Source of the DNA: a virus
IMG/VR virus record: IMGVR_UViG_3300048597_000273
Coordinates: 1-42,199 of that record
DNA length: 42,199 nucleotides
Direction: 5' to 3' (one strand)
Positions 567-6,530 of the stretch are shown one piece after another. Position 1 is the stretch's first letter. Each line of letters starts with the position of its first letter. A program made the position numbers and the translations under genes. Below the pieces are notes generated by a model that saw nothing but the letters and a program-made list of their open reading frames with translations, was not told where the DNA came from and searched no databases.

Positions 567-902
567 TCAGCGCCTGCGGCGGCCTGATCGGCGCACGGCG
601 GAGCGCAAGGTCGGGCCTGATCGGCCCTTGCGGCGTGGGCGCGAGGCGGCGACTGCAGCGGCACCGGTTGCCCCCGCAACGCCGGAGCCTGCCGGCAGGG
701 AGCCAGCATCCTCGTCCGGTTCATCGCCGAGATTGCAGGTGCGGCGAGACTGGCTCACCGAGCCGTCCTGACAAACAAAGCGGCCGCGTTCGCAATGCGA
801 GACACCACCCTTCTTGCCCGAGCACGGACGATTGCCCCTGCCCTCGGCTGCACCGGCAATGAACAGGGCCGGAAGGCCGAGCAAAAACCACCTGCGATCC
901 AT
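567..902 (-). CDS. YdcA-like secreted small cysteine-rich protein
   Basis: The 111-aa product has an N-terminal signal sequence (MDRRWFLLGLPALFIAGA). A compact motif of the form CSGxKGGxSHCxxGxFVCxDGSxSxSxxxC follows, with Cys at 27, 37, 44 and 56. This is the pattern of the E. coli YdcA family of small periplasmic proteins of unknown function, and the four cysteines suggest two disulfides. The start at 902 is chosen because it begins the signal peptide and has a GGGGGG stretch just upstream. About 55 residues of low-complexity Arg/Ala-rich tail follow the motif, which is longer than YdcA; the tail could be a readthrough after a frameshift. It lies at the end of the leftward lysogeny arm, so it is probably an accessory (moron) gene. 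Confidence 0.6.
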   Translation of the reverse strand: MDRRWFLLGLPALFIAGAAEGRGNRPCSGKKGGVSHCERGRFVCQDGSVSQSRRTCNLGDEPDEDAGSLPAGSGVAGATGAAAVAASRPRRKGRSGPTLRSAVRRSGRRRR

Positions 903-999
903 GATACCCCCCAAAGCTGTAATCCGAGGTCCGATGTTAGGGACACAGCGCCAGATATGCAGCTTCGTTCCTCTACGGAGGGCGATGTCCGGTAATGTC

Positions 1000-1425
1000 T
1001 CAAGTTGAAACCTTGTCATGCCGATCTGCTGCAACGGCGGTCGCCGGTGTCGAGCCTCGCGGCACAATCTTCACAGGTCGGCCCAGCTTGGCTGCGACGA
1101 TGCCGAGCATCGCGGCCTGCGCGCCAACGCAGGGCCAGCCAAGGGGCGGCTGCTGCGCTTCGTGATCATCGGATGCCAGCGCCAGCTCGATCACGTCCGG
1201 CGCACGACCTGACGCCTCCAGCGCGGCCGCCTGCGACACTGCCTCGCTGGCGGCGCGCTCGATCATGGCATACAGGGCGCGAAGCTCGTTTATCGCCCCA
1301 GCGGGCGCGGCGTTGCGCCCGGATGACCAGCTTTTCACCGTATCCGGTCGGACGTTCAAGAACGCCGCGGCCTCCCGGTGAGAGAGGCCGCATCTGTCAC
1401 AAAGAAGGGTGAATGTGGTGATCAT
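1000..1425 (-). CDS. Aca2/YdiL-like HTH regulator
   Basis: This 141-aa protein has an HTH at about residues 14-40 (LSHREAAAFLNVRPDTVKSW). A helical middle follows, then a C-terminal part beginning LGWPCVGAQAAML near residue 95. That layout, HTH followed by a late (L/I)GW...SVAAL-like segment, resembles the Aca2/YdiL (DUF1870-type) regulators that repress anti-CRISPR operons. The resemblance is judged by eye. The ATG overlaps the stop of the upstream small gene (ATGA), so the two are translationally coupled. Their shared promoter carries an inverted repeat, a natural site for this protein. An antitoxin-type repressor is the alternative. Confidence 0.55.
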   Translation of the reverse strand: MITTFTLLCDRCGLSHREAAAFLNVRPDTVKSWSSGRNAAPAGAINELRALYAMIERAASEAVSQAAALEASGRAPDVIELALASDDHEAQQPPLGWPCVGAQAAMLGIVAAKLGRPVKIVPRGSTPATAVAADRHDKVST

Positions 1426-1682
1426 GCCAGTACAACTCTATGAGATATATCCACACTCCGACCTTTGTGCGTCCCGACAACCGACACGTTAGCCTTTGCA
1501 ATATTAACTGATCTGAGCCACTTCTGAATGGTTACATCAGATGCTTTGCCGAACCACGAGCGCTGCTGAATTGGGTACGCTTTTAACGCCTCCCACCGTG
1601 CATCGAGATCATCGGGCAACGTGATGTGAGCGGGAACAGATGAGGCAGTAGCAATGGTGCGGGTGCGAGTAAAATAGCTCAT
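1422..1682 (-). CDS. Small unknown protein, anti-CRISPR candidate by context
   Basis: This 86-aa protein (MSYFTRTRTIAT...) matches no family I recognise. The start at 1682 follows a strong AGGAGG. Hand-counted GC over 1441-1680 is 123/240 (51%), far below the mid-60s typical of the phage, which suggests recent acquisition. It is the first gene of a two-gene operon and overlaps the start of an Aca2-like HTH gene by ATGA. A small unknown protein, own promoter, operator and a downstream HTH gene together are the classic acr-aca layout. Nothing in the protein itself proves that function. A toxin paired with an HTH antitoxin, or another accessory protein, remains possible. Confidence 0.5.
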   Translation of the reverse strand: MSYFTRTRTIATASSVPAHITLPDDLDARWEALKAYPIQQRSWFGKASDVTIQKWLRSVNIAKANVSVVGTHKGRSVDISHRVVLA

Positions 1683-1736
1683 TTTAGGCCTCCTAGCCTC
1701 TTGCGGTGGGCCGTTCCCGCCGCGTTTGTGATGTGC

Positions 1737-1764
1737 AATATACACTAACGGTGTATGTTGTCAA
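1737..1764 (-). promoter_or_regulatory. Promoter with operator for the small-protein/HTH operon
   Basis: On the minus strand, TTGACA (1759-1764) is separated by 16 nt from TATATT (1737-1742). A perfect inverted repeat, ATACAC-N5-GTGTAT (1740-1756), fills the spacer and overlaps the -10. A repressor bound there would block RNA polymerase, so autoregulation by the downstream HTH protein is likely. The promoter elements and repeat are visible; which protein binds is inferred. Confidence 0.65.
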
Positions 1765-3078: not shown

Positions 3079-3357
3079 ATGTCGGCCTCGGCCGCCATCG
3101 GGAGGCGTCTCTTGCACCCTGCGGACATTCTCGCCGCTGTTCGGAAGTCGAAGTTCCGCTTCTTGCCGGCTATTGCAGACAGATACGGTGTGAGTGAGGT
3201 CGCGCTGAGAGCTGCCTTCCGTCGCCCACAGCCTGCGGCCGAAAAAGCCATCTCCAAGGCAACAGGGATCCCGCTTCATGTGCTCTGGCCGGAGCGCTGG
3301 GGTCCGTCGGGCCAGCGCCTCGTGCGTCGCGGCGGCGTCCGCAAGAGCGCCGCGTGA
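3079..3357 (+). CDS. ner: Ner-like early transcription regulator
   Basis: This 92-aa protein has the Ner/Nlp winged-HTH pattern: HPADILAAV, then a helix-turn-helix (LPAIADRYGVSEVALRAAF, about residues 29-47), then GIPLHVLWPERW. In Mu, Ner represses both the early and repressor promoters just after infection. The ATG at 3079 has no Shine-Dalgarno sequence. An in-frame TTG at 3112 has GGGAGG (3100-3105) 6 nt upstream and would give a protein starting right at the conserved HPADI, so the true start may be 3112. It is the first gene of the rightward early operon. Confidence 0.82.
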   Translation: MSASAAIGRRLLHPADILAAVRKSKFRFLPAIADRYGVSEVALRAAFRRPQPAAEKAISKATGIPLHVLWPERWGPSGQRLVRRGGVRKSAA

Positions 3358-3605: not shown

Positions 3606-3736
3606 TGTTTCGCATCGTCCCTTCGATCACCGACACCCTCTGCCTCCTTGTGCTGATGGCGGCGGCCTACGCCGGCTTCGGCGCGGCGGCATCCGCTGAC
3701 CAGTCCATCATCAGCCTGTTGCGAGATCTCCAGTGA
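3605..3736 (+). CDS. Small single-pass membrane protein
   Basis: This 43-aa protein (MFRIVPSITDTLCLLVLMAA...) has one hydrophobic helix at about residues 10-30 and a short charged tail. Its ATG overlaps the previous stop (TGATG) and its stop overlaps the GTG of the ParB-like gene, so it is locked into the early operon. The function is unknown. A role at the inner membrane during early infection, for example exclusion, is only a guess. Confidence 0.55.
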   Translation: MFRIVPSITDTLCLLVLMAAAYAGFGAAASADQSIISLLRDLQ

Positions 3737-4614
3737 GTGACGCCTTCATCCCGCCCGCGCCGTTGCGTCCCGTCATGGAGCGCGTCCTTGAGATCGAGAT
3801 CGGGCTGATCGAGATCAGAGATCGCCTCAGGCCTGTGTCGCCTGCAGGCGTCGAGGCCCTCGCGGCCATGATCTCCGAGCACGGGCTCGAACAGCCGGTG
3901 CTGGTGCGCCCCATTCCCGGGTCCAATCGCGTGCAACTGGTGGCCGGTGCCCACCGGGTGGCAGCCGTCAACCTGCTGGGCCTGACCACCATCCGGGCCA
4001 TTCTGCGCGAGTGCTCGGACGCCGAGGCTCGCATCATCGAGATCGATGAGAACGTCGGCCGAGTGGAGTTGAGCCAGGTCGATCGCGCGGTCTTCCTCGC
4101 GACCCGCAAGGAAATCTACGAGGCCATGCACCCGGAAACGGTCATGGGGAAGGCGAAAAAACCAAAGAAGGGCGACGACTTAGGAAAGGTCGCAAACTTT
4201 GCGACCTTTGCCCGCTTCTCCAAGGATGCAGCCAGAGCGACGGGGTTGTCAGAGCGGACAATCCAGTTGGCGGTGCAGACTGTCTCCGACCTCTCCCCCG
4301 CCATCATCGCCCACCTGCGGGCCAGCCCGTTCGCCGACAATCAGGCGCAGATCATGGCGTTGGCCAGGCAGGTGCCGGATCATCGCCTGCCCATCGCCGA
4401 GGCGCTCGCCACCGGCCAGTACAAGAGCGTGCAGGCTGCCAAGATCGCGCTCGGTCTCGCGCCGAGGGTGCAGGTGGACGAGCAGGAGCAGGTCTTCCTG
4501 AAACTCAGCGACGCATGGTCTCGCGCCAACGCCAAGACGCGCCGCAGGTTCCTGCATCACTTCGAGCTGGCAGAGGCTCCGCGCGCGGGCCGCAAGGCAG
4601 GGGCAAAGCCATGA
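3733..4614 (+). CDS. ParB-like DNA-binding protein
   Basis: This 293-aa protein has a ParB/Srx-type N-terminal domain. RDRLRPVSPAGVEALAAMI is followed by QPVLVRPI and VAGAHRVAAVNLLG (about residues 30-85), matching the ParB box with GAHR in place of GERR. An HTH (ATGLSERTIQLAV, about 168-180) follows. GTG 3733 is used, overlapping the upstream stop (GTGA). ParB-like proteins are common between regulators and transposase in transposable phages of Proteobacteria; the function there is not established. It probably binds DNA. No ParA partner is present, so plasmid-style partitioning is unlikely. Confidence 0.72.
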   Translation: MSDAFIPPAPLRPVMERVLEIEIGLIEIRDRLRPVSPAGVEALAAMISEHGLEQPVLVRPIPGSNRVQLVAGAHRVAAVNLLGLTTIRAILRECSDAEARIIEIDENVGRVELSQVDRAVFLATRKEIYEAMHPETVMGKAKKPKKGDDLGKVANFATFARFSKDAARATGLSERTIQLAVQTVSDLSPAIIAHLRASPFADNQAQIMALARQVPDHRLPIAEALATGQYKSVQAAKIALGLAPRVQVDEQEQVFLKLSDAWSRANAKTRRRFLHHFELAEAPRAGRKAGAKP

Positions 4615-6530
4615 AGCAGTGGTTCACGCCAGCCGATATCCTGACCGTGGCCGGGACGGCCCTGCCGTCGACCATGTCCGGGTTGCAGGAGCATATCCTG
4701 CGCGAGGGCTGGCGTCGCAACCGGTCGCTTGCGCGTCGCCGCGAAGGGGCCGGTGGCGGCTATGAGTACCATGTCGAGCTGCTGCCTGCCGAGGTCCGCG
4801 CCTCGCTCGCGGCGCTCGACGAGACGTCGTCCGGGGCTGCGTTGGCCGCCCCTGCTGCCAGCGCTTCGAATGATGTCCGAAGCCCTCTCTGGGCATCCTT
4901 CGAAGCCCTGCCGCCAAAGGTCCGCGCCCGGGCGGCAGAGCGCCACGCTGCTGTCATGGCGGTGCATGACGCATCCGGGCCGCGTCAGTCGGCGGTGAGC
5001 CTGACCGCCACCGAGTTCGGCGTGTCGGCCTCCTCGCTCTGGGGCTGGCTGCGCCTTGTCGAAGGCGTTCCCCGCTCCGACTGGCTGCCTGCTCTCGCGC
5101 CGCGCTACGATGGCGGGCGCGCCACGGTCGAGGTCGATCCGAACGCCTGGGATTATTTCAAGGCGGATTATCTGTGCCCTGCCCAGCGTGGCTATGCGGC
5201 CTGCTATGACCGGCTCATCCGGGCGGCGAAGGAGCATGGCTGGTCACCCATTCCCAGCCTCAAGACCCTGCAGCGCAAGCTGGAGCGAGAAACACCCCGC
5301 GCCGTGATGACGCTGGCCCGGCAGGGCCGCGATGCCGCCGCCCGCATGATGCCCCACCAGCGGCGCGACCGCACGGTGTTCGCAGCCCTCGAGGCCGTCA
5401 ACGCCGACGGCTACAAGCACAACGTCTTCGTGCGCTGGCCTGATGGCACGGTCGGCCGGCCGATCAGCATCGTCTTCCAGGATGTGCGCAGCGGCGTCTG
5501 GCTGGCGCGCCGGACCGACAAGTCGGAGAACAAGGAGGCCGTCCGGCTCGCCATCGCCGACATGATCGGCCGCTATGGCATCCCCGAACATGCCTACTTC
5601 GACAACGGCCGCCACTTCGCTTCGAAGTGGCTCACGGGCCGGATGGCCTTCCGTTTCCGCTTCAAGGTTCGCGACGAGGAGCCGGAAGGCATCCTCACAA
5701 CGCTGGGCGTCAAGGTCCACTTCACCACGCCATATCGGGGCCAGTCCAAGCCCATCGAACGGTCCTTCCGCGAGATCGGCGAGTACATCGACAAGCACCC
5801 GCAATTTGCCGGGGCCTGGACGGGCGCAAGCCCGATGGCCAAGCCGGAAGATTACGGCAGCAAGGCCATTCCGCTGGATCTGTTCGAGCGGGTCTGCGCC
5901 TCTGAGATCGCGCACCACAACGCCAAGCCGGGCCGGCGCGGCTTTGGCATGAACGGCCGGTCCTTCGAGCAGGTCTTTGCCGAAACGCTCCCGGAGCTCG
6001 GCTTGCGCCGGGCCTCGGTCGAGCAGCAGCGCCTGTTCCTGCTGGCAGCCGAGGGTGTCACGGCCCGCGCGCCGAACGGCGAAATCCACCTGTTCGACAA
6101 CCGCTTCTGGGCGGAGGCACTCACCAACCACATCGGCCAGCGCCTGGTCGTGCGGTTCGATCCGCAGAACATGCGGGCCGGCATCACGGTCTACACGCTC
6201 GACAACAGGCTGATCTGCGAAGCCGAACGTCTCGATGACATCGGCTTCAACAGTGCCAGCGATGCACAGGAGGCCTCGCGCCTCACACGTGGCATCGCCC
6301 GCAACCGGCGCGAGTTCCTCGATCTCAACCGCCGGCTGGATGCCGCCGATCTGGCAAGGCTGACCCCGGTTCACGAGGTGGAGCCGACGCCCGAACCCGC
6401 CGGCAAGGTCACGCGGATGGTCGCCAATGGCCGGCCGCGCATCAGCAACGAGATGGACTTCGACGCCCTTGGCGCGGGGCTCGAACGCCTTGCCGACATC
6501 ACCAGCCTGAAAGCCCGGGACGGGGCCTGA
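4611..6530 (+). CDS. A: Mu-type DDE transposase A
   Basis: The 639-aa product catalyses strand cleavage and transfer for integration and replicative transposition. The N-terminus (WFTPADILTVAG...) is a Mu winged-helix domain. The middle holds HTH end-binding domains. The RNase H-like core carries D266 (NADGYKHNVFVRW), D331 (YFDNGR) and E383 (QSKPIERSFREIGEYIDKHP), nearly the spacing of MuA D269/D336/E392 and with close local similarity. The C-terminal part should contact MuB. ATG 4611 overlaps the end of the ParB-like gene by 4 nt. An upstream in-frame extension from 4515 is not needed, because the conserved N-terminus starts at 4611. It acts on the repeats in attL and attR. Confidence 0.95.
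   Translation: MKQWFTPADILTVAGTALPSTMSGLQEHILREGWRRNRSLARRREGAGGGYEYHVELLPAEVRASLAALDETSSGAALAAPAASASNDVRSPLWASFEALPPKVRARAAERHAAVMAVHDASGPRQSAVSLTATEFGVSASSLWGWLRLVEGVPRSDWLPALAPRYDGGRATVEVDPNAWDYFKADYLCPAQRGYAACYDRLIRAAKEHGWSPIPSLKTLQRKLERETPRAVMTLARQGRDAAARMMPHQRRDRTVFAALEAVNADGYKHNVFVRWPDGTVGRPISIVFQDVRSGVWLARRTDKSENKEAVRLAIADMIGRYGIPEHAYFDNGRHFASKWLTGRMAFRFRFKVRDEEPEGILTTLGVKVHFTTPYRGQSKPIERSFREIGEYIDKHPQFAGAWTGASPMAKPEDYGSKAIPLDLFERVCASEIAHHNAKPGRRGFGMNGRSFEQVFAETLPELGLRRASVEQQRLFLLAAEGVTARAPNGEIHLFDNRFWAEALTNHIGQRLVVRFDPQNMRAGITVYTLDNRLICEAERLDDIGFNSASDAQEASRLTRGIARNRREFLDLNRRLDAADLARLTPVHEVEPTPEPAGKVTRMVANGRPRISNEMDFDALGAGLERLADITSLKARDGA

What the first reader, a model, noticed from the sequence alone, without database searches (positions are those of the whole stretch)
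1000..1764. Putative anti-CRISPR operon (acr-aca)
A low-GC (51% by hand count) operon has its own TTGACA-N16-TATATT promoter, a perfect ATACAC-N5-GTGTAT operator in the spacer, an 86-aa unknown protein with AGGAGG, and an ATGA-coupled Aca2/YdiL-like HTH gene. This is the defining architecture of acr-aca loci. If correct, the 86-aa protein would be a new anti-CRISPR.
Basis: partly seen in the sequence, partly recalled or inferred. Interest (0 to 1): 0.85.

Follow-up and report, generated by a model that had tools for sequence, protein, structure and literature searches.

The report
Aca2-like operon with conserved RNA leader
A Mu-like phage carries a small self-regulated operon whose regulator resembles Aca2, the repressor of anti-CRISPR genes, and whose promoter and two-hairpin messenger leader are conserved in about 60 otherwise different phage and bacterial loci in front of ever-changing small genes, which makes the leader a handle for finding new phage counter-defence candidates; that this phage's 86-residue protein blocks CRISPR is not shown.

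Summary
The sequence features in the finding are real. On the minus strand lie an exact TTGACA-N16-TATATT promoter, a perfect ATACAC-N5-GTGTAT operator, an 86-aa ORF and an ATGA-coupled HTH gene. One correction: only leader plus 86-aa gene (1422-1764) is 51% GC; the HTH gene is 66%. The HTH protein is a divergent Aca2/YdiL-fold regulator: profile-profile E 9e-9 over both domains, and the top ten PDB fold matches are all SO3848, Aca2 or YdiL. Sixty-eight of 83 relatives carry the same ~85-nt leader: operator-promoter, then two RNA hairpins, the second holding the Shine-Dalgarno sequence. Both hairpins show strong covariation (at least 43 two-sided pair changes on the HTH tree). Between leader and HTH sit 1-4 small cargo proteins, 77 in 51 clusters, almost all unknown; near-identical operons carry different first genes, and two sibling Mu-like phages lack the leader. 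The best reading is an Aca2-like, autoregulated, swappable moron operon, probably repressed at both DNA and RNA level as Aca2 is. That its cargo is counter-defence is likely; that the 86-aa ORFan is an anti-CRISPR is unproven: no homologue, no known Acr among the cargo, an uninformative fold.

The parts
1759..1764 (-). -35 element TTGACA of the operon promoter
   Evidence: exact consensus; conserved as TTGAC/TTGC in the 62 aligned leaders
1740..1756 (.). operator, perfect inverted repeat ATACAC-CGTTA-GTGTAT lying in the promoter spacer and over the -10
   Evidence: unique in window, 0 expected; conserved and covarying in the family, outer pair A-T 39, G-C 12
1737..1742 (-). -10 element TATATT
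   Evidence: 16-nt spacer to TTGACA
1703..1723 (-). leader RNA hairpin P1: GCGG-C-GGG-AACGG-CCC-A-CCGC
   Evidence: MFE and centroid structure, z -2.8; RNAalifold consensus; covariation
1686..1699 (-). leader RNA hairpin P2 that holds the Shine-Dalgarno sequence: AGGC-TAGGAG-GCCT
   Evidence: pair 87-96 changes among U-A/G-C/C-G/A-U at least 11 times on the HTH tree
1689..1694 (-). Shine-Dalgarno AGGAGG of the cargo gene
   Evidence: sequence, 6 nt before ATG
1422..1682 (-). cargo gene: 86-aa ORFan, basic (pI 10.4), candidate counter-defence protein
   Evidence: open frame directly behind the conserved leader; no homologue; lowest-GC stretch of the window
1000..1425 (-). Aca2/YdiL-like HTH regulator, 141 aa, ATGA-coupled to the cargo gene
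   Evidence: hmmsearch vs PDB: 7ezy Aca2 E 7.5e-6; hhalign vs Aca2 prob 95.7%, E 8.8e-9; AlphaFold2 pLDDT 93, Foldseek top ten all SO3848/Aca2/YdiL

Best explanation
This is an Aca2-like, self-repressing, swappable cargo operon (a moron) of a Mu-like phage. A strong promoter, free of regulator when the DNA enters a cell, produces a burst of the 86-aa cargo protein and, by translational coupling, of the HTH regulator. The regulator, probably a dimer, then binds the ATACAC-N5-GTGTAT operator over the promoter and shuts transcription. It probably also binds the two-hairpin leader RNA (P1 with an A-U-N-G-G-type loop; P2 holding the Shine-Dalgarno sequence) and shuts translation, as Aca2 does. Cargo genes are exchanged behind a constant leader and in front of a constant regulator; by analogy with acr-aca loci they are most likely counter-defence proteins, of which only some would be anti-CRISPRs. 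Shown here by sequence: homology and fold of the regulator, conserved operator, covarying hairpins, cargo exchange, insertion pattern. Inferred: DNA and RNA binding, repression, the counter-defence role.
For: Regulator. Leader: the same ~85-nt element precedes the cargo in 68 of 83 loci, plus a divergent copy in L052, once per genome in 8 genomes of 3-7 Mb. Hairpins: 93.1% of cells paired against 81.3% shuffled; 50 two-sided changes against 13.6; covariation 0.276 against 0.113 shuffled and at most 0.076 when slid. At least 25 (P1) and 18 (P2) two-sided changes on the HTH tree. Blind reciprocal test: all five viral contigs found by leader pattern alone carry a family HTH behind the cargo, one of them new and with a different operator, GTATC-N5-GATAC. 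Cargo: 77 proteins in 51 clusters, 31 of 61 loci with a 4-nt overlap onto the HTH; 88 of 102 locus pairs with HTH 60-80% identical have unrelated cargo, and cargo GC is below HTH GC in 56 of 61 loci, P 6e-11; L074/L075/L076 have 94-98% identical HTHs but three different first cargo genes. Moron pattern: siblings L105/L106 lack the leader in their records. Same architecture in the ZF40 acrIF8-aca2 leader: operator, 9-bp hairpin with AUGG loop, SD hairpin.
Against: No binding or repression data. R1 does not hit the ZF40 leader, so the leader likeness to Aca2 is architectural, not proven common descent. The HTH fails the Pfam Aca2_YdiL cut-off. No cargo protein matches a known anti-CRISPR or anti-defence family. 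Published Aca2-like genes are mostly not beside known acr genes. More than half of the HTH-carrying genomes searched show no Cas1 (15 of 27), though many are incomplete MAGs.
Confidence: 0.72

Rival explanations
1. True acr-aca operon: the 86-aa protein is a new anti-CRISPR and the HTH protein is its Aca.
For: Architecture, Aca2-like regulator, small unannotated upstream gene in a phage.
Against: No homology of the 86-aa protein or of any cargo protein to a known Acr; 15 of 27 operon-bearing genomes show no Cas1; only 3% of Aca2-like genes sit behind known acr genes in published data.
Confidence: 0.22
2. Same operon logic, but the cargo serves other moron functions: anti-restriction, inhibition of other defences, superinfection exclusion or host take-over.
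For: Cargo is far more diverse than one target would suggest (51 clusters) and includes acidic as well as basic proteins and one HNH protein; many carriers lack Cas1.
Against: No cargo protein matches a characterised protein of any of these kinds except the single HNH hit.
Confidence: 0.45
3. The leader RNA is real, but a host factor or ribosome-based attenuation uses it; the HTH protein binds DNA only.
For: RNA binding by this HTH protein is inferred by analogy; the paper on RNA binding by Aca2 was not held.
Against: Leader and HTH family occur together in 68 of 83 loci and in 5 of 5 blind leader hits; both the leader architecture and the protein fold match Aca2.
Confidence: 0.2
4. Toxin-antitoxin pair: the 86-aa protein is a toxin and the HTH protein its antitoxin.
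For: Two-gene operon with HTH second and an operator in the promoter; weak fold matches to NatRT and HigA2 far below Aca2.
Against: No conserved toxin partner; the upstream gene is different from locus to locus; no toxin family hit; the fold is Aca2/YdiL.
Confidence: 0.04
5. Chance ORFs and a chance palindrome.
For: The 86-aa ORF has no homologue.
Against: Operator 0 expected; the leader matches R1 at E 9e-17 in the window, which is one of the 62 sequences R1 was built from; the HTH is conserved in more than 80 loci.
Confidence: 0.02

Closest known systems
acrIF8-aca2 operon of Pectobacterium phage ZF40 (Aca2, PDB 7b5j/7vjo; PMC8434428)
   Same: Two-domain HTH regulator fold, downstream position, inverted repeat over the promoter, 5' leader with one long hairpin (loop AUGG) and a second hairpin over the Shine-Dalgarno
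   Different: About 18% identity in the profile alignment, below the Pfam cut-off; operator ATACAC-N5-GTGTAT instead of GTTCGC-N4-GCGAAC; P1 is 7-8 bp with an internal mismatch and a 4-5-nt loop; alphaproteobacterial phages; cargo not known to be an Acr
Aca2 structure 7ezy
   Same: best sequence-profile match, profile positions 7-119 (E 7.5e-6)
   Different: origin and cargo differ
YdiL (1s4k) and SO3848 (2ox6)
   Same: SO3848 is the best fold match (prob 1.00, TMq 0.79)
   Different: chromosomal and of unknown function; no variable cargo known (PMC8434428)
AcrIC9 operon of Rhodobacter phage RcapNL (PMC7391736)
   Same: small gene followed by an HTH gene in an alphaproteobacterial phage
   Different: its HTH is a distant Aca3 homologue; tblastn of phages with family HTH members lists no Rhodobacter phage

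Membership tests
Aca2/YdiL regulators | two-domain fold, N-terminal HTH plus alpha-beta C-terminal dimerisation domain | tested here: met
   AlphaFold2 pLDDT 93; Foldseek top ten all SO3848/Aca2/YdiL; dimer not modelled
Aca2/YdiL regulators | sequence homology over both domains | tested here: met
   hhalign prob 95.7%, E 8.8e-9, 114 columns; hmmsearch 7ezy 7-119
Aca2/YdiL regulators | Pfam PF08965 score above its gathering cut-off | tested here: not met
   12.8 against 23.8 bits for the window protein: a divergent branch, not a member of the Pfam family as curated
Aca proteins (anti-CRISPR-associated) | encoded in an operon with a verified anti-CRISPR | tested here: not met
   no known Acr among 73 cargo proteins; the libraries hold only part of the known Acrs, so filed as Aca2-like, not as Aca
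Aca proteins (anti-CRISPR-associated) | inverted repeat in the core promoter | tested here: met
Aca proteins (anti-CRISPR-associated) | same regulator downstream of different small genes | tested here: met
   51 cargo clusters in 61 loci with called cargo; 31 with a 4-nt overlap
Aca proteins (anti-CRISPR-associated) | represses its own promoter | not testable with these tools
   needs binding and reporter assays
Aca2-type RNA control | conserved stem-loops at the ribosome-binding site | tested here: met
   ZF40 counterpart
Aca2-type RNA control | regulator binds the leader RNA | not testable with these tools
   inferred from Aca2; that paper was not held
Anti-CRISPR (86-aa protein) | inhibits a CRISPR-Cas system | not testable with these tools
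   needs a targeting assay
Anti-CRISPR (86-aa protein) | homology or fold match to a known Acr | tested here: inconclusive
   no hit; fold pLDDT 53
Anti-CRISPR (86-aa protein) | hosts of the operon enriched for CRISPR-Cas | tested here: inconclusive
Type II toxin-antitoxin | conserved toxin partner | tested here: not met
   upstream genes unrelated between loci, no toxin family

The most novel reading that the evidence does not exclude
A previously undescribed alphaproteobacterial branch of dual DNA- and RNA-binding Aca2-like regulators controls, through one operator and one two-hairpin leader, more than 50 unrelated families of counter-defence proteins, new anti-CRISPRs (this 86-aa protein among them) included, so that the leader alone can be used to find such genes without homology.
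Probability: 0.25. Interest if true: 0.88.

Novelty: new variant of a known kind. Interest (0 to 1): 0.68.

Why it matters
Counter-defence genes are small, fast-evolving and mostly undetectable by homology. A conserved operator-plus-hairpin leader that marks candidate genes in alphaproteobacterial phages, absent from Rfam, gives a homology-free way to list them (77 proteins here). It also shows that the operator plus SD-hairpin arrangement of Aca2 loci is found in a distant branch of the family, with many compensatory changes as natural test cases for RNA recognition. In several loci (L038, L046, L051, L052, L081, L086 and the newly found L119) the operator has changed while the hairpins stay, which makes the separate roles of DNA and RNA control directly testable.

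Tried and rejected
Rfam at gathering level and at permissive E-value: nothing. Homologues of the 86-aa protein: none. AlphaFold of the 86-aa protein: pLDDT 53, so no fold search was made with it. Cargo families against PDB: no anti-CRISPR hit. A cargo family elsewhere in viral contigs (A8): only the two loci already known, both in this operon; A7 was too diverse to search with and one member had no phage hit. A class-wide scan of 385 genomes for the leader found only the genome already known, but only 10 candidates per genome were scored, so it is insensitive. AcrIC9 link: rejected, different HTH. Toxin-antitoxin reading: rejected. Common descent of this leader and the ZF40 leader: not supported by the covariance model, so only likeness of architecture is claimed. 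Papers on RNA binding by Aca2 could not be found or opened.

Full report
WHAT IS THERE. The window is an IMG/VR virus record of 42,199 bases. Its left end is that of a Mu-like transposable phage: CI-like repressor with S24 peptidase (2994-2290, minus), Ner-like winged HTH (3079-3357), ParB-like protein (3733-4614) and Mu transposase A (4515-6530). The finding lies outside the repressor, on the minus strand. Every element described was found at its coordinates. The GC claim needs correction: 1422-1764 (leader plus 86-aa gene) is 50.7% GC and no other 340-bp stretch sampled is lower, whereas the HTH gene has the phage's own 66%. The foreign-looking part is therefore the cargo, not the regulator.

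THE REGULATOR. A single-sequence Pfam scan gives only sub-threshold HTH and Aca2_YdiL scores. Relatives were collected from viral contigs and from genomes, mostly alphaproteobacterial where the organism is named. With a profile of 11 relatives the top four PDB hits are all Aca2; with 66 rows Aca2 7ezy is hit at E 7.5e-6 over profile positions 7-119. Profile-profile comparison with four Aca2 relatives, including ZF40 Aca2, gives 95.7% probability and E 8.8e-9 over 114 columns. The AlphaFold2 model has pLDDT 93 and its ten best PDB matches are SO3848, Aca2 and YdiL, all with probability about 1; YdiL and SO3848 are the structures that the Aca2 crystal paper names as the only ones matching both domains of Aca2 (PMC8434428). 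The protein is therefore an Aca2/YdiL-fold regulator. It is not filed as an 'Aca', because association with a verified anti-CRISPR was looked for and not found.

THE LEADER. The in-frame extensions of many unrelated upstream ORFs spelled a similar pseudo-peptide, which turned out to be conserved DNA. Iterated nhmmer finds the same ~85-nt element upstream in 68 of 83 loci, at 78-1653 nt from the HTH start; several of the rest are cut by contig ends, and L052 has a divergent copy. The element is TTGAC, operator ATACAC-N5-GTGTAT, -10, about 20 nt, hairpin P1 (GCGG-N-GGG, loop mostly AUUGG or AUGG, CCC-N-CCGC), hairpin P2 (AGGU, loop with the Shine-Dalgarno, ACCU), then the cargo ATG. On the unforced MAFFT alignment of 62 leaders RNAalifold predicts P1 and P2, and 8 of its 9 pairs have compensatory changes. 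With the full 11-pair structure, 93.1% of cells pair against 81.3% shuffled and at most 50.6% slid, and the covariation score is 0.276 against 0.113 shuffled and at most 0.076 slid. Because related sequences can inflate such counts, pair states were mapped on a tree of the HTH proteins: parsimony needs at least 25 two-sided Watson-Crick replacements in P1 and 18 in P2. A caveat is that leaders might not follow the HTH tree. The window's leader RNA folds to P1 plus P2 with z -2.8. The operator covaries too: its outer pair is A-T in 39 sequences and G-C in 12. Rfam has no match. The covariance model R1 hits exactly once in each of eight 3-7 Mb genomes. A blind pattern search for the leader in 2.9 million viral contigs returned five contigs; four were already known through the HTH, and the fifth (L119) also has a family HTH directly behind the cargo (E 2.9e-28) although its operator is different, GTATC-N5-GATAC. 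In L038, L046, L051, L052, L081 and L086 the operator has likewise changed while the hairpins are kept.

THE CARGO. Between leader and HTH lie 1-4 ORFs (48 of 62 leaders have one): 77 proteins, median 99 aa, 51 clusters, 41 of them singletons; in 31 of 61 loci the last one overlaps the HTH start by 4 nt. Of 73 scanned, one matches Pfam (an HNH protein) and none matches an anti-CRISPR or toxin family. Of 102 pairs of loci with HTHs 60-80% identical, 88 have unrelated cargo; three Roseomonas operons with 94-98% identical HTHs share the second cargo gene but have three unrelated first genes. Cargo GC is below HTH GC in 56 of 61 loci (P 6e-11). The two nearest sibling Mu-like phages (MuA 62-64% identical) have no leader anywhere in their records (26 and 45 kb; the shorter is probably a fragment); in L105 the neighbouring small gene (GNRPCSGKKGG) and the repressor, which flank the operon in the window, are present without it. 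This is moron behaviour.

HOW IT MOST LIKELY WORKS. Steps shown by sequence: strong promoter with operator inside it, SD-bearing hairpin, coupled regulator, exchangeable cargo. Steps inferred: the regulator represses transcription through the operator, as shown for Aca1-3 and others in PMC9410906, and probably translation through the leader RNA. The acrIF8-aca2 leader of ZF40 has the same order of parts: operator GTTCGC-N4-GCGAAC, a 9-bp hairpin with loop AUGG, a second hairpin CUCC/GAGG over the SD. From memory, Aca2 was shown in 2024 to bind such RNA hairpins as well as DNA (Nature, doi 10.1038/s41586-024-07644-1); this paper was not held and the statement is not counted as a test. The two leaders are not matched by R1, so likeness of architecture is claimed, not descent. 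The circuit would give an early burst of cargo followed by shut-off, which fits counter-defence proteins needed at entry.

IS IT AN ANTI-CRISPR? Not shown. Against: no homology, many hosts without Cas1, and the published figure that only 3% of Aca2-like genes sit behind known acr genes. The 86-aa protein is a reasonable candidate among many; anti-restriction or other counter-defence is at least as likely.

NOVELTY. The circuit type is known (Aca2). New, as far as the held sources show, are a divergent alphaproteobacterial branch of it, a covarying two-hairpin leader absent from Rfam, and about 50 cargo clusters almost without annotation. Hence 'new variant of a known kind'.

Noticed in passing
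L119:4545-4582 (minus); also L038, L046, L051, L052, L081, L086 leaders: The DNA operator has changed to other palindromes (for example GTATC-N5-GATAC in L119, TGCGGAAATTCCGCA in L052) while both RNA hairpins are kept, so DNA and RNA recognition may evolve separately.
   Followed up: partly
L074:5256-5624, L075:5310-5627, L076:5369-5632: Three Roseomonas operons with 94-98% identical HTH proteins and the same second cargo gene carry three unrelated first cargo genes: a recent cargo swap.
   Followed up: partly
L047:5825-5990: A leader stands only 78 nt before the HTH with no ORF of normal length between: an apparently empty operon or one with a very short ORF.
   Followed up: no
L088:5516-5998: The only annotated cargo: an HNH-endonuclease-like protein as second gene of the operon in a Rhodobacter capsulatus genome; the same scans gave weak hits of one cargo protein to PtuB and IscB models.
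   Followed up: no
L036:4346-5996, L043:4539-5954: Leaders driving three or four genes before the HTH; the last genes of the two loci are related to each other, and a similar protein is encoded just downstream of the HTH in L009.
   Followed up: no
window 567-1067 (minus) and L105:1-279 (minus): Small, probably exported protein with GNRPCSGKKGGVSHC motif at the left end of this Mu-like phage and of a sibling; flanks the operon's insertion site.
   Followed up: partly
L097:1170-1245 (ZF40 acrIF8-aca2 leader): The ZF40 leader RNA folds into a 9-bp hairpin with AUGG loop plus an SD hairpin, close in plan to the leader described here.
   Followed up: partly
L099:1444-1755 (Mycobacterium phage harman) and Megabear-type phages, gene 1: The HTH protein of these mycobacteriophages matches both this family and ZF40 Aca2 weakly: a possible further Aca2-like branch, next to the terminase gene in harman.
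   Followed up: no
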